From: Bernardetiaceae bacterium
GTDB taxonomy: Bacteria > Bacteroidota > Bacteroidia > Cytophagales > Thermoflexibacteraceae
Length of the DNA stretch: 64,000 nucleotides
Reading direction: 5' to 3'
Assembly: GCA_025057115.1 (NCBI GenBank)
Contig: JANWWZ010000002.1
Location: 186,001-250,000 of the forward strand
Shown: positions 3,043 to 60,946 of the stretch, one piece after another
Layout of the letters: each line of letters starts with the position of its first letter
How positions within the stretch are numbered: the stretch's first letter is position 1
Program-made: the position numbers and the translations under genes
The notes under the pieces: generated by a model
The model's database searches: none
What the model saw: only the letters and a program-made list of their open reading frames with translations
Told to the model about the DNA's origin: nothing

Positions 3043-5712
3043 ATGGCAAACAATCCCGAAGCTCTTCGCCTGAAGGCAACTTATAACAATACTGGCTGGA
3101 AACGCTGGGGTCCCTATCTTTCTGAAAGACAGTGGGGAACAGTCCGCGAAGACTATAGCCCCTACGGCTATGCATGGGGTTATATTACCCATGACATGGC
3201 TCGCAGCAAAGCCTATCGATGGGGCGAAGACGGCATCGGCGGGCTCTCCGACACTAAACAAACTGTTTGCCTTGCCCATGCTTTCTGGAATGGCAAAGAT
3301 ACCATCATCAAAGAAAGACTTTTCGGATTGGGCAACAACGAAGGCAACCACGGCGAAGACGTAAAGGAAATTTACTACTACCTAGACTCTACTCCTACGC
3401 ACTCTTACATGAAAATGCTTTACAAGTATCCACAAAGCCGATTTCCTTATGAAAAATTAGTGGAAGAAAACAAGCGTCGCAGCCGTAAAGAGCCCGAGTA
3501 CGAAATTATGGATACTGGCATTTTTGACAATGACGATTATTTTGACATATTTATCGAGTACGCCAAAGCAGAACCAGAAGATATTTTAGTAAAGGTAACT
3601 GCCATCAACCGAAGTAGTAAAGACGCCGTTTTGCACTTTTTGCCTACAGTATGGTTTCGCAATACGTGGTCTTGGGGTTATGAAACATGGGAATGGAAAT
3701 ACAAACCTTTGCTTTTTGCAGACACCGAAGGAAGGAAAATCATTCATATCCATCACAAAAACGTTGGCGAACTAAGACTTTACTACGAGGCTAACCCAGA
3801 ACTTATATTTTGCGAAAACGAAACAAACTACCGTCGGTTGCGCCACTTGGTTGAGGCTGTCAAACCCGATCATCCCTATCCCAAAGATGCCATTAATGAC
3901 TATATCATCACTGGTGATAAGCGCTATAAAAAACCCGACCACAAGGGCACTAAGGTAGCTTTGCACTATCCTGTGGTCATTTCCGGAGGGAAGTCTCATA
4001 TTGTCCGCCTGCGTTTGACCAATGGAATTGACCATAGCAATCCTTTTGATGACTTTGAAACCATTTTTCAACTTCGCAAGCAAGAAGCAGACCTTTTCTA
4101 CCAAGAGGTTCATCAGCAAATGCCTCACTACAATGCCGACCTTTGCAACATTCAACGGCAAGCCTTTGCAGGCATGATGTGGAACAAGCAATACTACTAC
4201 TACAACGTAGAGCAATGGCTCAACGGCGACCCCATCCACGGCAATAATTTGCCCGAAGAACGCAAAACAGGTCGCAATCACAAGTGGAAACACCTTTACA
4301 ACTCCAACTTGATTTCCATGCCTGACAAATGGGAGTATCCCTGGTATGCAGCTTGGGATTTGGCTTTTCACTGCGTGCCTATTGCTAAAATAGATCCCAC
4401 TTTTGCCAAGCGGCAGCTAGTGCTCATGCTGCGCGAATACTACATGCATCCCAACGGACAAATACCAGCGTATGAGTGGCATTTTAGTGATGTGAATCCA
4501 CCTGTGCATGCATGGGGCGCTTGGAAGGTATACAACATTGAAAAACAAGCCAATGATGGCAAGGGCGACATAGAATTTTTATCCATTGTGTTCCAAAAAC
4601 TGCTTATGAACTTCACTTGGTGGGTCAATCAAAAGGATCGCGAAGGAAACAACCTCTTTGAAGGAGGCTTCTTAGGACTGGATAACATTGGCGTATTTGA
4701 CCGCAGCAATCCCGACTTGCCTACGGGAAGTTATTTGGAACAAGCCGATGCCACTAGCTGGATGGCAATGTATAGCCTTAACATGTTGCGCATTGCCATT
4801 GAGCTAGCCCAATTCAAGCCTTATTACCAGGAAATGGCTTCCAAGTTTTTCGAACATTTTCTTGCCATTGCTGCGGCTATGTTCAACATGGGAGCCGAAC
4901 ATATCGACCTATGGGATGAAGAAGATGAATTTTATTACGACGTGGTACATCCTGCCAATCACCGCAGTCATCGGCTCAAGGTTCGCTCTATTGTAGGCAT
5001 CATGCCCATTTTAGCCGTGGAGGTACTAACCCCAGAACTGCTAGAAAAACTGCCCGACTTTCGGCGCCGTTTAGAGTGGACCCTTCGCAACAAGCCCGCT
5101 ACGGCTAACCTCATTTCTCGTTGGTATCAGCTAGGCCGAGGCGAAAATCGCATGCTTTCCCTGCTACGACTTCACCGACTCAAGTGCATTTTGCGACGCA
5201 TGCTAGACCCAGAAGAATTCCTTTCCAACTATGGCATCCGCTCCCTTTCTAAGTACCACGAAAAGCATCCCTACGTGTACTACTTCAAAGACCGCGCTTA
5301 TGTGGTAGAATACCTTCCTGGCGAATCAGATTCCTCCATGTTCGGCGGCAATTCCAACTGGCGCGGACCAGTGTGGTTTCCCCTTAATTACCTCATCATC
5401 GAAGCCTTGCTCAAGTTTTATGAATACTACGGCGACTCTCACAAGTTTGAACATCCCACCGGCAGCGGCAATATGCTCACCTTAAAAGAAATTGCCGACG
5501 ACCTCAAGCGAAGGCTCATTAGCATTTTCACCAAAAATGAAAAAGGAGAGCGGATAGTTTTCGGGAATTGCAAAAAAATGCAACAAGACCCCCATTTCAG
5601 AGATTACATCTTGTTTTATGAATACTTTCACGGTGATACGGGCAAGGGGCTAGGGGCTTCGCATCAGTGTGGTTGGACAGGACTTATTGCTGCCCTCATC
5701 GGTGATTTTTAG
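3043..5712 (+). CDS. GH63-like glucosidase (MGH1-type catalytic domain)
   Basis: Large cytoplasmic glycoside hydrolase (889 residues, no signal peptide) related to mannosyl-oligosaccharide glucosidases. In bacteria such enzymes are inverting alpha-glucosidases acting on small glucosides. The N-terminal block WGPYLSERQWGTVREDYS and the (alpha/alpha)6 barrel block YPWYAAWDLAFHCVPIAKID, with the conserved Asp of the catalytic region, are typical, as are GQIPAYEWHFSDVNPP, WLNGDP and GPVWFPLNYL. Length fits the bacterial branch. It is transcribed alone, divergent from the dipeptidase gene. Natural substrate unknown. Confidence 0.85.
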   Translation: MANNPEALRLKATYNNTGWKRWGPYLSERQWGTVREDYSPYGYAWGYITHDMARSKAYRWGEDGIGGLSDTKQTVCLAHAFWNGKDTIIKERLFGLGNNEGNHGEDVKEIYYYLDSTPTHSYMKMLYKYPQSRFPYEKLVEENKRRSRKEPEYEIMDTGIFDNDDYFDIFIEYAKAEPEDILVKVTAINRSSKDAVLHFLPTVWFRNTWSWGYETWEWKYKPLLFADTEGRKIIHIHHKNVGELRLYYEANPELIFCENETNYRRLRHLVEAVKPDHPYPKDAINDYIITGDKRYKKPDHKGTKVALHYPVVISGGKSHIVRLRLTNGIDHSNPFDDFETIFQLRKQEADLFYQEVHQQMPHYNADLCNIQRQAFAGMMWNKQYYYYNVEQWLNGDPIHGNNLPEERKTGRNHKWKHLYNSNLISMPDKWEYPWYAAWDLAFHCVPIAKIDPTFAKRQLVLMLREYYMHPNGQIPAYEWHFSDVNPPVHAWGAWKVYNIEKQANDGKGDIEFLSIVFQKLLMNFTWWVNQKDREGNNLFEGGFLGLDNIGVFDRSNPDLPTGSYLEQADATSWMAMYSLNMLRIAIELAQFKPYYQEMASKFFEHFLAIAAAMFNMGAEHIDLWDEEDEFYYDVVHPANHRSHRLKVRSIVGIMPILAVEVLTPELLEKLPDFRRRLEWTLRNKPATANLISRWYQLGRGENRMLSLLRLHRLKCILRRMLDPEEFLSNYGIRSLSKYHEKHPYVYYFKDRAYVVEYLPGESDSSMFGGNSNWRGPVWFPLNYLIIEALLKFYEYYGDSHKFEHPTGSGNMLTLKEIADDLKRRLISIFTKNEKGERIVFGNCKKMQQDPHFRDYILFYEYFHGDTGKGLGASHQCGWTGLIAALIGDF

Positions 5713-5803
5713 CATTTGCAGTCCAGCAGATTTTTGTAGAGCTTTTCCAAAACCCGACCGTGTCAACTGCATTTGCTTTGTAACCCTACTGCTGCCCCTT
5801 TTG

Positions 5804-6520
5804 CTAGGGGGTATTATTATCTCTTCTTGCTTGGGCTTTCAACTGGGATAGCTGTTGTTCTAATTTTACTGCTTCGGCGGCAAAAAACGCTTCCCAGTCG
5901 GGATTTTGGGCGGCAAAGTAGGTTTCTTCTTGCTGCAGTTGTCTCAGTTTTAGGATTAGTTCATCACGGCGGCGAGTGAGAGTCTCAATTAACTGCTGCA
6001 ATTGTTCTATGTTATCAGGTAATGAGTCAAGACCAAATGCCAATCCACTTGCTAGTTGGTCTAAAAGTTCTTGCAGGCGTTGAATGTCTTGTGCTTTGTA
6101 GGCTTCAAGGGCTTGTGCCATTAATCGGTTAGCAGATGCCAATTTTTCAGGGTCGTTGACGTATCGGTCAGGGTGGATTTTTCTGACCACTTTTTTGAAT
6201 AGTTCGCGCAGGGTTTGGGTTTCTTCTTGGCTCAAAGCAGGGCGATGGATGTGAGCCTGTTCGGCTTGTTAGCTGTATTGTTCAAAGCGCTCTCGGGCTT
6301 GTTTGGCTTTTTCTTGGGCATATTTTTTTTGAGTGCGCTGGGCTTCGCGTTCAGCTAGTTGAGCTTGGTACCAAGCAATTTCGCGCAGCAAATGACCCAA
6401 CTTTGCCCAATAGGCTTGTTCAAAGCGTCTTATGAGTTCTTGTGCCTGCTCAATGGATGCTTGCAGGGCAGCTATTTCGGCTTCGAGCAGTTCTATTTGC
6501 TGTTTGTAAAATCCATATAA
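5804..6520 (-). pseudogene. Coiled-coil/J-domain protein, N-terminally truncated and interrupted by TAA
   Basis: Minus-strand coding sequence for a coiled-coil protein with a J-like module. The upstream part (6520 to 6272) reads YGFYKQQIELLEAEIAAL... through KKYAQEKAKQARERFEQYS, strongly heptad-like. A TAA at 6271-6269 follows (CAA to TAA is the simplest change), and the same frame continues to 5804 with KKVVRKIHPDRY, a J-domain HPD core, then more coiled coil ending KAQARRDNNTP. The downstream part alone could be made from a TTG at 6235 (143 residues). The true N-terminus is missing: at about 6515-6525 the frame meets the beginning of the oppositely oriented kinase remnant. Pseudogene or sequencing error at the stop; the missing N-terminus argues for real decay. 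Confidence 0.75.
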
Positions 6521-8664
6521 GCGCGGGCTTTGCCTGCGTGTACAAAGTCCGAGAACATCACACCTCTTACGCCCTCAAGTGCTTCATCCGACCCCTCGAC
6601 AAACGACGAGAGTACTACCAGCACATTTGCCATTTTCTAAGCCAGCAGAAAAGTCCTTACTTATTAGCTCCTCAGTACTTGAGCGAAAGCCTCTACGTAG
6701 CCAGCACTGCAGCAGGCAACGGATGATACGACGTAGTGCTCATGCCTTGGGTAGAAGGTCGAACACTGGGAGAATGGGTGGCACAAGCCTGCAAGCAACC
6801 AGACGTAAACACCTTGCAGCAGCTGGCAAAGAGTTTCAACCAGTTAGCCATTTGGCTGCTGGGGCAGGAGTTTGCTCATGGAGACTTGAAGCACGATAAC
6901 TTGATGGTGCACCCTGACGGCAGTTTGCTGCTGGTGGATTACGACGGCATGTTTGTGCCCGCCTTGCAAGGCAAGCCAGCCTTAGAATTGGGAGGAAGTG
7001 GCTACCAACATCCCGCCCGCAGTGCCCATCATTTTGACCGCCATCTGGACGATTTTTCCATTTTGGTCATCAGCCTTTCGCTGGAGGCTTTGGCAGTTGC
7101 TCCTGAATTGTACCAAGAAAAGCACACGGACAACTTACTGCTTGCTTTGAACGATTTCCGGGACCCCTGCAACTCCGCCATGCTCAACAAGCTATCTGAT
7201 TTGAATCATCCTGTAATAAACCGCTTTTTGATACTGTTGTACCAAAGTCTTCTTGTGGAGCGTTTGCATATTTCTCAGCTGGGGGCTTTATTAGAGGAAG
7301 TGGGTAAAAAGCACGAGATGCAAAGCAAGTCAGTCCTTCAAACACCTGCCCAGCCGTCGGAGGCGGTGCGCTTAGTTCCCTATCGCAAGGGCAACAAATG
7401 GGGCTTTTGTACTTTAGACAAGCAAATAGTCATTCCTTGTACGTATGATGAGGCATGGTCCTTCCACCAAGAGCGGGCATTGGTGAGAAAAAATGGTCGA
7501 TGGGGCTTTATGGACTCTACGGGTCAAGAAGTCGTCCCGTGTGTGTATGAGGATGCATGGTTCTTTCGCGAAGGGCGAGCAAGGGTAGAAAAAAACGGCA
7601 AATATGGCTTTATCAATCTTGCTGGGGAAGAAGTCGTACCATGTGTGTATGATAGCGCAGAAGACTTTTGCAAAGGGCTGGCAAAGGTGAAAAGAAATGG
7701 CAACTATGGCTTTGTCAACCCTACTGGTCAAGAAGTGGTCCCCTGTGTGTATGATGAGGTATATGACCTCCATGAAGGGCTGGCAATGGTGAAAAAAAAT
7801 AACCGATGGGGCTTTGGCTCTACTGACCAAAAAGTCATCCCGTACATATATGATTGGGCAGATGGTTTCCACGAAGGGCTGACAGAGTTGGAAAACAGTG
7901 GTCGATGGGGCTTTGTGAATTCTGCGGGTCAGGAAGTGGTCCCCTGTGTATATGAATGGGCAGGAAACTTCCACGAAGGACGGGCAAAGGTGAAAAAAAA
8001 TGGTCGATGGGGTTTCATTGACTCTGCAGGTCAAGAAGTCATCCCCTGTGTGTATGAGTGGGCAGGAAACTTCCACGAAGAGCTGGCGTGGGTGGAAAAA
8101 AACGGCAAGTATGGCTTTGTTAACCTTGTGGGTCAAGAGGTAGTCTCGTGTGTGTATGAGTGGCCAAGGGACTTCCACCAAGGGCGGGCAGGAGTGTTAA
8201 AAAATGGTCGATGGGGCTTTATTGACTCTGCAGGTCAAGAAATCGTCCCGTGTGTGTATGATCAGGTAAGAGACTTCAGTGAAGGACGAGCAAGGGTAAA
8301 AAGAAATGGTCGATGGGGCTTTATGGACTCTACGGGTCAAGAAATCGTCCCGTGTAGGTATAGTGAGGCTGAGGACTTCAGCCAAGGACGGGCAAGGGTA
8401 AAAAGAAATGGTCGATGGGGTTTTATTGACCCTACGGGTCAAGAAATCCTCCCATGTGTGTATGATTGGGTAGAGGACTTTCGCGAAGGACGGGCAAGGG
8501 TGGAAAAAGGCGGCAACTATGGTTTTGTCAACTTGGCGGGTCAAGAAGTGGTCCCATGTGTGTATGAGGGGGCACGGGACTTCCGCGAAGGGCTGGCAAG
8601 GGTGAAAAAAAATGGCAAGTGGTTTTATATCAACAGCGAAGGAGTGGAGTATTACCAGGATTGA
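6521..8664 (+). pseudogene. Ser/Thr kinase-like protein with 12 WG repeats, N-terminally truncated, in-frame TGA
   Basis: Kinase domain followed by WG beta-repeats. The frame opens at the glycine-loop remnant SAGFACVYKV with the ALKCF lysine, then meets a TGA at 6724-6726 between AAGNG and YDVVLMPWVEG; both sides are in the same frame. Downstream are the catalytic loop HGDLKHDNLMV, the DYDGMFVP metal-binding segment and LDDFS. From about 7395 come 12 WG repeats of about 34 residues (KWGF, RWGF or YGF ... GQEVVPCVYD ... F.EGRARV), ending WFYINSEGVEYYQD. One repeat near 7804-7812 is a residue short. A product without the N-lobe could start at GTG 6736 (642 residues), but it would lack the ATP-binding loop and lysine. 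Close kin often sit beside J-domain genes in Bacteroidota (recollection). Confidence 0.75.
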
Positions 8665-8690: not shown

Positions 8691-8738
8691 CCCCTAAAGT
8701 AGCTTTTCTTTTTTGCTTTTTTTGGCTTGCTTTAGGGG
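8691..8738 (+). terminator. Hairpin after the WG-kinase gene
   Basis: CCCCTAAAG (8691-8699) pairs with CTTTAGGGG (8730-8738) across a T-rich loop. TTTT follows shortly after (8747-8752). A possible rho-independent terminator between the WG gene and the symporter; the loop is long, so confidence is limited. Confidence 0.45.
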
Positions 8739-8754
8739 CCATAAAATTTTTTAT

Positions 8755-10197
8755 ATGTCGCCAGTGGTAATTGCTAGCATTGTAGCGGGATACTTTTCTC
8801 TGCTAATAGCAGTGGCATGGTACACCTCGCAAGGAGCCACCACCGATGTTTTTTTCACTGCCAATAAATCAGCTCCATGGTATTTAGTAGCCTTCGGCAT
8901 GATTGGGGCATCTCTCTCAGGGGTAACTTTTATTTCCGTGCCAGGAGCAGTAGGCAAGCAAGCCTTTGCTTATCTGCAAATGGTGCTGGGCTACTTGCCT
9001 GGCTACGCCTTTATCGCCCTTGTGCTTATGCCCTTGTACTATCGGCTCAATCTGGTCTCTATTTACACCTACCTAGAGGAGCGGTTCGGATTTTGGGCTC
9101 ATAAAACGGGGTCTTTTTTCTTTCTCTTGTCTCGTTCCATTGGAGCAGCTTTTCGGCTTTACTTGACAGCGCTCGTGTTGCAGTTAGGCATTTTCCAGCC
9201 TTGGGGCATCCCCTTCGAGATCAACGTGCTAATAACCATCGCCCTGATTTGGGTTTACACCTTCAAGGGCGGCATTAAGACCATTATTTTTACAGATGTG
9301 TTGCAGACATTTTTCCTGGTGAGCGCTTTAGCCATTAGCGTGCTGCTGATAGCAAAAGAGCTGGACTTTGGTTTATCAGGGCTGATTGCAAATGTATGGG
9401 AACATCCGCGCTGGCAAGTGTTTTTTTGGGATTGGAACGATGACAAAAATTTTTTCAAACAATTTCTTGCAGGTACTTTCATTGCCATCACAATGACGGG
9501 CATGGACCAAGACCTGATGCAAAAAAATTTGACCTGCCGTAATTTGCACGAGGCGCAAAAAAATATGTTTTCCTTTTGCATCATCTTGGTGGTGGTCAAT
9601 TTGCTCTTTCTCACTTTAGGGGCATTGCTGTACCTCTACGCAGAAAGCCATCGCATTCCCATTCCAGAGAAGACTGACTACCTCTATCCCACCCTTGCCC
9701 TCAACCACTTTGGAGCTGCAGTAGCTATTTTTTTCCTGCTAGGCATTACTGCTTCCTCCTATGCCAGTGCGGACTCGGCGCTTGCTTCCCTGACCACTGC
9801 CTTTTGCATCGATTTTCTCGATTTTAAAAACCGCACCAGCGAGGCAGAAAAAGCGCGCCTAAAACTGTGGGTACACGTGGGTTTCTCCCTCCTGCTTTAC
9901 TTGATCATCCTCATTTTCAAATGGATTAACAACGAAGCAGTCATTAACGCCGTTTTTCGCGTGGCAGGATATACCTACGGTCCGCTGTTAGGTCTTTTCA
10001 CTTTCGGGCTTTTTACCAAGCGAAAAGTACAAGACAAAGCCGTCCCGTGGATTTGCCTTGCCTCTCCTGCCATCTCTTACCTGCTAAATGCTTACTCACA
10101 AGTTTGGTTCAACGGATACAAATTCGGGTTTGAGTTGCTCATAGTTAATGGCGCTATCACTTTCACAGGTTTGTGGCTATTTACTTGCCGCAAATAA
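8755..10197 (+). CDS. Sodium/solute symporter (SSS family)
   Basis: Inner-membrane Na+-coupled transporter of 480 residues with about 13 hydrophobic helices. I start at the ATG at 8755 (MSPVVIASIVAGYFSLL), directly before TM1; the frame open from 8713 adds sequence lying in the terminator-like hairpin. Family signatures: GASLSGVTFISVPG in the TM1-TM2 region, YTFKGGIKTIIFTDVLQ, GMDQDLMQKNLTCR and ASSYASADSALASL. It resembles the sugar/proline-type SSS carriers of Bacteroidota; the substrate cannot be read from sequence. It is convergent with the transglutaminase-like gene. Confidence 0.88.
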   Translation: MSPVVIASIVAGYFSLLIAVAWYTSQGATTDVFFTANKSAPWYLVAFGMIGASLSGVTFISVPGAVGKQAFAYLQMVLGYLPGYAFIALVLMPLYYRLNLVSIYTYLEERFGFWAHKTGSFFFLLSRSIGAAFRLYLTALVLQLGIFQPWGIPFEINVLITIALIWVYTFKGGIKTIIFTDVLQTFFLVSALAISVLLIAKELDFGLSGLIANVWEHPRWQVFFWDWNDDKNFFKQFLAGTFIAITMTGMDQDLMQKNLTCRNLHEAQKNMFSFCIILVVVNLLFLTLGALLYLYAESHRIPIPEKTDYLYPTLALNHFGAAVAIFFLLGITASSYASADSALASLTTAFCIDFLDFKNRTSEAEKARLKLWVHVGFSLLLYLIILIFKWINNEAVINAVFRVAGYTYGPLLGLFTFGLFTKRKVQDKAVPWICLASPAISYLLNAYSQVWFNGYKFGFELLIVNGAITFTGLWLFTCRK

Positions 10198-10218
10198 GGA
10201 GCGCTAGCCACAGCGCCC

Positions 10219-11040
10219 CTACTCCTCAATAGCCAGTCTCGGAAAGTTTTTTAGCTTGTCTTCATAGGCAGCCATTGCCTTGAGCAATGCATTTTGCTTT
10301 TCAAAGGAAAGGGAATGAGTAGCTAAGATGCCTTTCAGAGCCAGGATCATCAATTCAATACCGCGTTCAGTAGCCATCAAGGGCTGCGATTTGAAAAGGT
10401 ACTCGGCAGCAGAGGCAAATAGCCCGTGGTTATATGCCCTAACTGCTTGGTTAAAGCATTGCAAACCCGCAAGTTCCTCAAATGGCACCACGCGCATAAT
10501 TTGAAATTCAGAGCGATAGTAGCCGGGTTCCCTTTCTTGATAAGAAGAAAAGCGCCGCCGATACTCTTCCTTGCGCTGAGCTACTTGCAGTTGAGAAGTA
10601 ACCACTCCGCCTATGGGGTCGGTAGTTTCAATGAGGACTTCCCTGCCATCGCTCAGGAAGGTGGTTAGGAAAATGTGCACGTTGGTTTCGTAAATAACAG
10701 GCTGAAAGCCAGCTTTTTTTAACAAGTAAGCAAAAACGATAGTGCCACTGAGGCAATCGTATTGGCGATGTTGGAGCACATCGGTCAGCAGGCTGCCTTG
10801 GCGATAGTCTCTTAGATATCTTGCAAAAAGCCTCCTGTGAATGGTTTTGATGCGCTTTTCTTCATGGGAAGGCAAGTCTTTGAGCACTTCTGCGGCAAGG
10901 GCATCCATTTTCTGCTGAAAATAAGCAGTATCGGCGCCTGTAGAGCTACAGGCGAAGAAATCCGACGAAATTTGCGCTCCCGCCCATAGATACAGGCCAA
11001 ACGCAACTTGAAACAACAAAAGCGCTTTTAAGGTAGGCAC
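10219..11040 (-). CDS. Secreted transglutaminase-like protein
   Basis: 273-residue exported protein with a papain-like transglutaminase core. The signal peptide MPTLKALLLFQVAFGLYLWAGAQ ends at a plausible AQ site. A Cys-His-Asp triad is visible in order: Cys in YDCLSGTIVFAYLL, His in NVHIFL and Asp in IETTDP. The C-terminal third is helical (FNQAVRAYNHGLFASAAEYLF), TPR-like in character. Bacterial members more often act as proteases or scaffolds than as cross-linkers, so no reaction is claimed. It stands alone, divergent from parA. Confidence 0.65.
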   Translation of the reverse strand: MPTLKALLLFQVAFGLYLWAGAQISSDFFACSSTGADTAYFQQKMDALAAEVLKDLPSHEEKRIKTIHRRLFARYLRDYRQGSLLTDVLQHRQYDCLSGTIVFAYLLKKAGFQPVIYETNVHIFLTTFLSDGREVLIETTDPIGGVVTSQLQVAQRKEEYRRRFSSYQEREPGYYRSEFQIMRVVPFEELAGLQCFNQAVRAYNHGLFASAAEYLFKSQPLMATERGIELMILALKGILATHSLSFEKQNALLKAMAAYEDKLKNFPRLAIEE

Positions 11041-11187: not shown

Positions 11188-11214
11188 AAAATCGTGCTAT
11201 ATGCCTTAGTTTAC

Positions 11215-11988
11215 ATGGGCAAGTTAATTGCAATCGCCAATCAAAAAGGCGGCGTAGGAAAAACCACGACGGCTATCAACCTCGCCGCCAGTTTAGCAGC
11301 CCTGGAATACAAATGTTTAGTAGTAGATGCCGATGCCCAAGCTAACTCTACCTCAGGGCTGGGTTTCAATCCGCGAGAGGTGCAAAAAAGCATCTACGAC
11401 TGCATGATCAACCAAACGGCTGTGCAGGAAGTCATTAGACCTACCTCCTTTGAATACCTCGACTTAATCCCTTCCCATATTGACCTGGTAGGAGCTGAAA
11501 TTGAGATGATTAACATTCCCCAGCGGGAAGAGCGCATGCGAGCAGCCCTGCTGCCCATTAAAAACCAATATGATTTCATTTTTATTGACTGCTCTCCTTC
11601 TCTGGGTCTGATCACTGTCAATGCACTCACCGCAGCCGATTCGGTGATCATCCCTGTACAATGCGAATACTTTGCCTTAGAAGGGCTGGGCAAACTGCTC
11701 AATACCATCAAAATCATTCAAAGCCGACTTAACCCTTCCTTGCAAATAGAAGGCATCTTGCTGACCATGTACGATGTGCGGCTAAAACTTGCCAATCAAG
11801 TGGTAGAGGAAGTCAATCACCATTTTAAGCATTTGGTGTTCCGCACCATGATACCGCGCAACATACGCCTGAGCGAAGCTCCTAGCTACGGCATGCCCGC
11901 CATCGCCCACGATGCAGAAAGCAAAGGCGCCATCAGTTACCTCAACCTAGCAAGAGAAATTTTGAACAAAAACGCCATTGCAAAGTAA
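11215..11988 (+). CDS. parA: ParA/Soj chromosome-partitioning ATPase
   Basis: Deviant Walker ATPase of 257 residues that works with ParB to segregate the chromosome origin region. GKLIAIANQKGGVGKTTTAIN carries the deviant Walker A motif with its signature lysine; VVDADAQANSTSGLG and FIDCSPSLGLITVNAL give A' and Walker B. Short Soj-type form without an N-terminal HTH, as for chromosomal ParA. Start ATG 11215 fits the family (MGKLIAIANQKGG); seven extra codons are possible upstream but lie on the promoter. parB follows after 3 bases. Confidence 0.95.
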   Translation: MGKLIAIANQKGGVGKTTTAINLAASLAALEYKCLVVDADAQANSTSGLGFNPREVQKSIYDCMINQTAVQEVIRPTSFEYLDLIPSHIDLVGAEIEMINIPQREERMRAALLPIKNQYDFIFIDCSPSLGLITVNALTAADSVIIPVQCEYFALEGLGKLLNTIKIIQSRLNPSLQIEGILLTMYDVRLKLANQVVEEVNHHFKHLVFRTMIPRNIRLSEAPSYGMPAIAHDAESKGAISYLNLAREILNKNAIAK

Positions 11989-11991
11989 GCC

Positions 11992-12891
11992 ATGGTAGAG
12001 AAACCTCAGTTAAAAAAGCGCACTGGCTTGGGCAAAGGATTGAGTGCGCTGCTGGAAGACACCGAGCGAACCCTATCCACCGATGCCACAGAGGTAGTAG
12101 CAGGGCGAATCTATGAAATTCCCTTAGAGCAAATTCAAGCCAATCCTTTCCAGCCCCGCACCGACTTTGACCGCACTGCCTTAGAAGAACTAGCCGAATC
12201 CATTCGCGTACAAGGGATCATCCAACCCATTACCGTGCGGCAACTCCAGCCAGGCAGCTATCAACTCATCGCTGGCGAGCGGCGCCTCAAAGCCTCTAAA
12301 ATGGCAGGACTTACCCATATTCCTGCTTACGTGCGCACTGCCAACGACCAGCAAATGCTCGAAATGGCTCTAATCGAAAACATTCAACGCGAAGAGCTCA
12401 ACCCCATCGAAATTGCTCTATGCTACCAGCGGCTTATTACCGAATGCCATCTCAAGCAAGAAGAACTAGGTCAGCGCGTAGGCAAAAACCGCACTACGGT
12501 TACTAACTACTTGCGCTTGCTCAAACTCCCTCCAGACATTCAAGCTGGGCTGCGCGATAGACAACTGACCATGGGGCATGCTCGCGCTCTTATCAATGTA
12601 GAAAACGTAGCAACGCAGCTTGCCCTTTACAAAAAAATAGTAGAAGAGCAATGGTCGGTCAGAAAAACCGAGCAAGTAGTAAGAGAGTTGCTTCTCGGAT
12701 CTTCAAAAGAGAAACAAACGCCTGCAAAGCCACCGCTTAATCCCGAAATTATTCAACTGCAAAATCGGCTCTCTAGCCGCTATGGAACCCGCGTGCAAAT
12801 TGTTCGCAATGCACAGGGCAAGGGCGAAATCAAAATCCCATTCTTTTCCGATGAAGATCTAAACCGCATTTTAGAACTGCTGGAAACGTAA
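11992..12891 (+). CDS. parB: ParB/Spo0J chromosome-partitioning protein
   Basis: 299-residue CTPase/DNA-binding partner of ParA. N-terminal RTGLGKGLSALL, then the CTP-binding ParB/Srx domain with NPFQPRTDF, LIAGERRLKA and the ENIQREELNPIEIA box, a central HTH (EELGQRVGKNRTTVTNYLRLL) and a C-terminal dimerisation region preceded by a lysine/proline linker. Standard length. Cotranscribed with parA and the DUF5683 gene. No parS site was searched exhaustively by eye. Confidence 0.95.
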   Translation: MVEKPQLKKRTGLGKGLSALLEDTERTLSTDATEVVAGRIYEIPLEQIQANPFQPRTDFDRTALEELAESIRVQGIIQPITVRQLQPGSYQLIAGERRLKASKMAGLTHIPAYVRTANDQQMLEMALIENIQREELNPIEIALCYQRLITECHLKQEELGQRVGKNRTTVTNYLRLLKLPPDIQAGLRDRQLTMGHARALINVENVATQLALYKKIVEEQWSVRKTEQVVRELLLGSSKEKQTPAKPPLNPEIIQLQNRLSSRYGTRVQIVRNAQGKGEIKIPFFSDEDLNRILELLET

Positions 12892-60572: not shown

Positions 60573-60671
60573 ACTACGGGGCTAATACAGCCTCTCCTAA
60601 ACAAATAAACCGCCTTGCGGAAGTTGACTGAGATCTCCTTGGCTTTTACACCCGAAAGCCTCGGCGAGTGC

Positions 60672-60855
60672 GATGCAGGCAGGTCTCCTGGCTTGCTCAC
60701 TGCTAACAGCCTTCCCAAAACGCGAACGTTTCAGTGGCAGGGGATTGGTTAGCAGCTTGGTTATGAGCTTACAGTTGCGGGGACAGCTCCGGACTTGCAC
60801 CGGTATTCCCTTTTAAGCCTTGCCACGCGGCTGCGCAGCAACGCACCTAGCATCT
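60672..60855 (-). ncRNA. Cobalamin (B12) riboswitch
   Basis: Minus-strand leader with the conserved blocks in order: GGTGCAAGTCCGGAGCTG (60784-60801), CCCCGCAACTGTAAGC (60767-60782), the B12 box GCCACTG (60732-60738) and GCCAGGAGACCTGCCTGC (60675-60692). Spacing is normal. It lies 100 bases before the TonB receptor, whose expression it should repress when adenosylcobalamin is present. A small hairpin with T-rich follow-on at 60593-60625 may be the expression platform. Confidence 0.93.
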
Positions 60856-60946
60856 CGGCAAAGATAGCCCTTTTTCACAGCTTTGCAAGCAAACGGTAAA
60901 ACAAAAACTTTGCATTTTTTGCATACTAATTTGCTTCACATTTTGT

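What the first reader, a model, noticed from the sequence alone, without database searches (positions are those of the whole stretch)
6235..6742. Mutually truncated head-to-head genes: one deletion appears to have removed both N-termini and the promoter between them
On the minus strand the J-domain protein frame starts abruptly near 6520 within coiled coil; on the plus strand the kinase frame starts near 6520 in its glycine loop. The N-termini of both and the divergent promoter are missing, with at most about 10 bases between the remnants. The simplest reading is one deletion spanning the promoter region. Both also carry a single in-frame stop (TAA 6271-6269, TGA 6724-6726), each reachable by C-to-T change, which fits later decay without selection.
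Basis: partly seen in the sequence, partly recalled or inferred. Interest (0 to 1): 0.58.

Follow-up and report, generated by a model that had tools for sequence, protein, structure and literature searches.

The report
Gutted remnant of a phage-defence cassette
Two broken genes lying head to head in this bacterium look like the outer ends of what was a four-gene cassette resembling a known anti-phage system, whose middle has been lost; the loss itself is ordinary decay, but intact copies in relatives point to a little-described version of that system.

Summary
The frames, both in-frame stops and the head-to-head junction near 6520 are real. The J side matches a profile of intact relatives from position 2 of 229 (window 6502) and the kinase side only from position 42 of 306 (window 6514): 11 bases lie between them, against 340 in the one intact head-to-head pair found, G039. 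So the kinase has lost its first ~36-41 residues, whereas the conserved part of the J protein is complete and lacks only a start codon and leader.

In relatives these two genes belong to a vWA-PP2C-kinase cassette resembling the TerY-P anti-phage system, with WG repeats on the kinase and a J-domain partner that is often fused to a PLD nuclease. vWA and PP2C are absent from this genome. The outer 3' ends of both remnants are intact and everything missing is interior. I therefore favour one larger interior deletion that took both middle genes and perhaps a PLD domain, then point decay, over a promoter-sized deletion. Small deletion plus separate loss, or an inversion, are not excluded.

The remnant is ordinary decay. 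The J/PLD-bearing WG-kinase version of TerY-P is the useful by-product.

The parts
5804..6268 (-). J-domain and C-terminal coiled-coil part of the J protein, downstream of its in-frame stop (mechanical ORF TTG 6235..5804, 143 aa)
   Evidence: profile positions 85-227 of 229, E 4.3e-31; 14 of 14 near-invariant J columns kept over both pieces
6269..6271 (-). in-frame TAA in the J gene
6272..6502 (-). N-terminal coiled-coil part of the J protein, no start codon in frame
   Evidence: profile positions 2-77 of 229, E 8.1e-13; open frame 6574-6272
6503..6513 (.). junction: 11 bases between the two homologies, where promoter, kinase start and probably vWA and PP2C genes are missing
   Evidence: profile boundaries; 340 bases between the same points in L055
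6514..6723 (+). kinase N-lobe fragment from the glycine loop on, no kinase start
   Evidence: profile positions 42-107 of 306, E 3.7e-7
6724..6726 (+). in-frame TGA in the kinase gene
6727..8664 (+). kinase C-lobe (6727-7209) followed by 11 WG repeats; mechanical ORF GTG 6736..8664, 642 aa
   Evidence: profile positions 116-274; PF14903 11 stretches, 2.2e-158; PADLOC STK_OB 2e-40

Best explanation
The locus is the dead remnant of a TerY-P-like cassette. Shown: its two surviving genes are a J-domain/coiled-coil protein and a WG-repeat protein kinase; both are interrupted; vWA (TerY) and PP2C are absent from the genome; both outer 3' ends are intact. Inferred: the ancestor was ordered J(-) PP2C(-) vWA(-) | kinase(+), and one interior deletion of roughly 2.5 kb ran from the 5' part of the J gene (perhaps including an N-terminal PLD nuclease domain) through PP2C, vWA and the divergent promoter into kinase codon ~36-41. 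Point decay (one stop in each remnant) followed. The intact cassette most likely works as a phosphorylation switch: kinase against PP2C, with the vWA protein as a scaffold and the J/PLD protein as chaperone-coupled partner or nuclease effector. This too is inference from the families. The remnant cannot make an intact kinase: the glycine loop and ATP-binding lysine sit in a start-less piece ahead of the stop, apart from the catalytic loop.
For: Intact cassettes with these two genes plus vWA and PP2C. vWA query: 0 of 13 family genomes, including this one, against 19 of 390 genomes of the order that match. PP2C profile: 0 of 4 congeners, 10 of 10 cassette-bearing genomes. Kinase starts at profile 42 of 306; J and kinase 3' ends complete. 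Both adjacencies needed by the inferred ancestor occur separately in relatives: kinase|vWA divergent in L184 and L185, PP2C followed by J in L187, L189 and L192. The window kinase groups with L184, L185 and L187, support 87/91. A second cassette broken in its interior exists in G032/L192.
Against: No genome with the exact inferred order (kinase | vWA, PP2C, J) was found. The one intact J|kinase head-to-head pair (G039) has vWA and PP2C outside the pair, beyond the J 3' end, which needs two losses. Loss of a PLD domain is not shown: the window J may be sister to the PLD-less J clade (p-AU 0.212). Frames are still well kept (41 of 43 near-invariant kinase columns; dN/dS 0.12 against G002), so decay is recent or some product is still made.
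Confidence: 0.55

Rival explanations
1. G039-like ancestor: kinase and J already head to head with about 340 bases between the conserved parts; a small deletion removed the promoter and kinase start, and vWA and PP2C were lost separately from beyond the J 3' end.
For: An intact head-to-head pair exists in G039.
Against: Needs a second deletion ending within the 91 bases between the J stop and the neighbouring GH63 gene while leaving the J 3' end intact; in the best tree the window kinase does not group with G039's, though grouping it with the PLD-less set is not firmly rejected (p-AU 0.085).
Confidence: 0.2
2. Inversion breakpoint: in a co-directional J-vWA-PP2C-kinase operon the segment from the J start to the kinase glycine loop inverted, placing J head to head with a beheaded kinase without any loss at the junction; vWA, PP2C and the kinase start were lost later with the left flank.
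For: Co-directional order is the commonest (9 of 15 J-bearing cassettes), one such inversion would give the G039 order, and the neighbouring SSF gene is inverted relative to all 3 congeners.
Against: Still needs a later loss of vWA and PP2C that stops neatly at the J 3' end; in the window the kinase profile matches nowhere but the two pieces of the remnant, so no inverted kinase start was seen.
Confidence: 0.15
3. The short remnants are still working genes: the 143-aa J and 642-aa WG ORFs are expressed from internal starts.
For: Open WG array of 11 repeats, low dN/dS against G002, conserved columns kept.
Against: No start for the N-terminal pieces; the downstream kinase ORF lacks glycine loop and ATP-binding lysine; partner genes absent; the only congeneric copy (G002) also carries an in-frame stop, in its WG array.
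Confidence: 0.07
4. Assembly artefact: misjoin or sequencing errors at the junction and stops.
For: No reads were available; genome is in 86 contigs.
Against: The junction lies inside a 342.6-kb contig, no N in the window, single place in the genome; missing vWA and PP2C are independent of the junction.
Confidence: 0.03

Closest known systems
TerY-P (TerY vWA, PP2C phosphatase, serine/threonine kinase-OB), stand-alone anti-phage system
   Same: G039 and G504 relatives of the missing and remaining genes match PADLOC's three TerY-P models (TerY 5.8e-59 and 3.4e-62, PP2C 1.8e-10 and 3.5e-13, STK_OB 4.9e-42 and 1.2e-49); the window kinase matches STK_OB 2e-40. That these three models make up PADLOC's TerY-P system is recalled from their names and numbers.
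   Different: Window has no TerY and no PP2C; kinase carries WG repeats where PADLOC's model name has OB; a J-domain (or PLD-J) gene is added.
TerY-P triads with kinase-zinc ribbon in Type II and III-A CoCoNuTs (PMC11090510, passages read)
   Same: vWA, PP2C and kinase triad beside nuclease systems
   Different: C-terminal zinc ribbon there; WG repeats here; no CoCoNuT genes were sought or seen around the window pair.
DrmC-like PLD proteins of DISARM
   Same: The PLD part of the fused J partner matches DrmC models weakly (L187 1.2e-13, L059 2.9e-9)
   Different: Fused to a coiled-coil/J domain and placed in a TerY-P-like cassette; absent from the window copy.

Membership tests
TerY-P system | TerY-like vWA gene present | tested here: not met
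   0 of 13 family genomes incl. own (same query matches 19 of 390); none in window by profile at E 1
TerY-P system | PP2C phosphatase gene present | tested here: not met
   profile A2: 0 of 4 congeners, 10 of 10 cassette-bearing genomes
TerY-P system | serine/threonine kinase related to STK_OB | tested here: met
   kinase C-lobe piece matches PDLC02223, 2e-40, profile 111-267 of 562; gene interrupted
TerY-P system | OB fold or zinc ribbon after the kinase | tested here: not met
   C-terminal part is 11 WG repeats; STK_OB match covers the kinase part only
TerY-P-like cassette, WG-kinase plus J partner (as in relatives) | J/coiled-coil gene with the kinase | tested here: met
   both in window; in the kinase clade J found in 13 of 14 loci, the miss cut by contig ends; 0 of 7 loci outside
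J-domain protein (PF00226) | J domain with HPD | tested here: inconclusive
   HPD present in the window frame but no Pfam match at 1e-3 for the 143-aa ORF; intact relatives match weakly, mostly below cut-off
active anti-phage system | protects against phage | not testable with these tools
   no experiment; remnant lacks two genes

The most novel reading that the evidence does not exclude
Bacteroidota carry a TerY-P subtype in which the kinase ends in WG repeats and a fourth gene, a PLD-nuclease fused to a coiled-coil J domain, is the effector: phosphorylation state set by kinase and PP2C on the vWA scaffold releases the nuclease, held in check through its J domain and Hsp70. One lineage has dropped the PLD domain, and the window shows such a cassette gutted by one deletion that removed switch, scaffold and nuclease together while leaving the outer ends.
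Probability: 0.25. Interest if true: 0.6.

Novelty: new variant of a known kind. Interest (0 to 1): 0.36.

Why it matters
The remnant itself is ordinary: defence cassettes come and go, and a second one in the order (G032) is broken differently. It matters as a pointer. The J-domain partner marks one clade of TerY-P-like cassettes and is a PLD nuclease fusion in 8 of 15 of them, one of them beside an Argonaute and a type I restriction-like helicase. If that partner is the effector, the mode of action of TerY-P becomes testable with gene removals.

Tried and rejected
vWA relic left of J: a short frame at 5713-5790 (-) looked faintly like a vWA start; the vWA profile gave nothing in the window at E 1, so it is not claimed.

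J start at the junction: an out-of-frame ATG lies at 6516-6514 (-). About 26% of 18-base stretches of the minus strand hold an ATG, so this is no evidence that the original start is there.

PLD loss from the window J: suggested by the tree (PLD-less J proteins form a 99/98 clade without the window J) but grouping the window J with them is not rejected (p-AU 0.212).

Viral contigs: 25 pattern matches, none a relative. Paper searches for a J, PLD or WG partner of TerY found no description; one search's ranking was useless. Most subscription journals are not held, so this is not proof that none exists. The primary TerY-P papers (Anantharaman 2012, Gao 2020) were not read; they are cited through passages of PMC11090510. 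Of PMC10889362 and PMC3710099 I read passages.

Left out of counts: L060 (same contig as L056) and L063 (contig of the same length as L182, and the same profile hits) were treated as duplicates. L056 and L061 J proteins were not scanned with Pfam; they are counted PLD-less because their frames leave no room for the domain. The Bacteroidales loci were screened by profile (no J found) but not put in the trees.

Full report
What is there. The window lies in contig C22 of a 3.0-Mb genome in 86 contigs. Between a GH63-type glycosidase (3043-5712, +) and a sodium:solute symporter (8713-10197, +) sit two interrupted genes. On the minus strand a J-domain/coiled-coil frame runs 6574-6272, is cut by TAA at 6271-6269 and runs on to a stop at 5804-5806; on the plus strand a kinase frame runs 6436-6723, is cut by TGA at 6724-6726 and runs on to 8664. 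Pfam finds 11 WG repeats in the latter.

Where each begins. Profiles built in scripts from relatives give J pieces at positions 2-77 and 85-227 of 229 and kinase pieces at 42-107 and 116-274 of 306. So J homology starts at 6502, kinase homology at 6514, 11 bases apart. The kinase lacks its first ~36-41 residues. The J protein does not lack any conserved part: it lacks a start codon and leader. Intact J proteins can have very short leaders (Flavobacterium sp. SUN052, L065: position 2 at residue 5 of the stop-to-stop frame). An intact head-to-head pair exists in G039 of the same order, with 340 bases between the same two points.

What the pair belongs to. In G039 the order is kinase | J, vWA, PP2C; in G437 it is J, vWA, PP2C, kinase on one strand. 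Among 15 distinct J-bearing cassettes the order is J-vWA-PP2C-kinase on one strand in 9 (L056, L061, L182, L064, L065, L084, L059, L181, L186), J-vWA-PP2C with no kinase seen in the stretch taken in 1 (L183), kinase | J-vWA-PP2C in 1 (L055), kinase-vWA-...-PP2C-J in 2 (L187, and L192, which is broken), vWA-kinase-...-PP2C-J in 1 (L189), and J and kinase on one strand with vWA-PP2C divergent in 1 (L184). Ten further cassettes showed no J: L185, L188 and L190 are cut by contig ends; L191 and L193-L198 are not J-bearing in the stretch taken. In the kinase tree of 25 rows a 99/98 branch separates 16 rows (14 loci, the window and G002) from 9 rows (7 loci); J was found in 13 of those 14 loci (the miss is L185) and 0 of those 7.

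The partner proteins match three PADLOC models that I take, from recall, to be its TerY-P set: G039 vWA to TerY 5.8e-59, PP2C 1.8e-10, kinase to STK_OB 4.9e-42; G504/L187 3.4e-62, 3.5e-13, 1.2e-49. The window kinase matches STK_OB at 2e-40. PMC11090510 (passages) says that TerY-P-like modules with a kinase-OB fusion act as stand-alone anti-phage systems, citing Gao et al. 2020; PMC10889362 (passages) reports protection by TerY-P in Pseudomonas aeruginosa PAO1. I read neither primary TerY-P paper.

The J partner carries an N-terminal PLD-like nuclease domain (PF13091) in 8 of 15 cassettes (L059, L084, L183, L184, L186, L187, L189, L192) and none in 7 (L055, L064, L065, L181, L182 via L063, scanned; L056 and L061 not scanned, judged by length). 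The seven PLD-less J proteins form one clade, 99/98, without the window J. Holding the window J with them costs 2.8 log units (p-AU 0.212), and holding the window and G002 kinases with theirs costs 13.2 (p-AU 0.085). So a lost PLD domain is plausible, not shown.

What is missing. The vWA query found nothing in any of 13 genomes of the family, own included, while 19 of 390 genomes of the order matched. A PP2C profile found nothing in 4 of 4 genomes of the genus while all 10 cassette-bearing genomes given as controls matched. Earlier single-sequence searches were also empty (0 of 7 each) but had no control. Among the genomes of the genus the kinase is present only here and in G002; G002's copy starts at a contig end and has an in-frame TAG in its WG array. 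The far end of that small contig resembles a sequencing adapter (recalled), so its quality is doubtful.

How the junction arose. Both 3' ends are complete and everything lost lies between them. If the ancestor was J(-) PP2C(-) vWA(-) | kinase(+), one deletion explains it all. That exact order was not found, but its two unusual joints occur separately: kinase | vWA in L184 and L185, PP2C followed by J in L187, L189 and L192, and the window kinase groups with L184, L185 and L187 (87/91). The size, roughly 2.5 kb, is my estimate from gene lengths in relatives. Against it: G039 shows that J | kinase can exist with vWA and PP2C on the far side, which would need a small deletion plus a separate loss; and an inversion in a co-directional operon could also bring the two ends together. 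The neighbourhood is prone to rearrangement: the symporter is inverted relative to all three congeners, and G001 and G003 have no cassette between these genes.

How far it has decayed. The window keeps 14 of 14 near-invariant J columns and 41 of 43 kinase columns. Against G002 the kinase shows dN 0.21, dS 1.82 over 163 codons and the WG part dN 0.29, dS 1.43 over 136 codons (dS is near saturation and WG repeats may be misaligned). That means long selection and recent loss, or residual function of a WG product. Whether each stop came from a C-to-T change cannot be told, since relatives differ at both residues.

A parallel case. In G032 (L192) the kinase ends at profile position 109, a Ppl-like 897-aa gene lies on the other strand, and vWA survives only from position 87, whereas its near relative G504 (L187) keeps kinase and vWA side by side. 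Interior breakage of these cassettes is thus not unique to the window.

Verdict. Observation partly confirmed, interpretation partly supported. The locus is a recently broken TerY-P-like cassette; the remnant is ordinary, and the J/PLD-bearing WG-kinase form is a new variant of a known kind as far as the paper searches here could tell.

Noticed in passing
L059 747-10453 (G188): A row of defence-like genes: type I restriction-like helicase, Argonaute (pAgo 2e-261), PLD-J fusion, vWA, PP2C, kinase, all on one strand.
   Followed up: partly
L192 126-9986 (G032): A second broken cassette: kinase and vWA each cut, with a Ppl-like gene between them on the other strand and a DpdE/ZorD-like helicase upstream.
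   Followed up: partly
window 8713-11040: The symporter gene is inverted relative to its neighbour (10219-11040) when compared with G001, G002 and G003; only 21 bases separate the two genes here.
   Followed up: partly
L058 (G002 contig C36): Small contig whose end resembles an Illumina adapter (recalled), and whose kinase carries an in-frame TAG in the WG array.
   Followed up: partly
window 60661-60866 (-): Cobalamin riboswitch, 104.7 bits.
   Followed up: no
window 11194-12891: ParA- and ParB-like genes close to the remnant, in an order kept in G001, G002 and G003 (names by sequence look only).
   Followed up: no
loci L066-L132 except L084: Many Bacteroidales loci carry one to four tandem kinases of this family, often followed by vWA and PP2C, without a J gene.
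   Followed up: no
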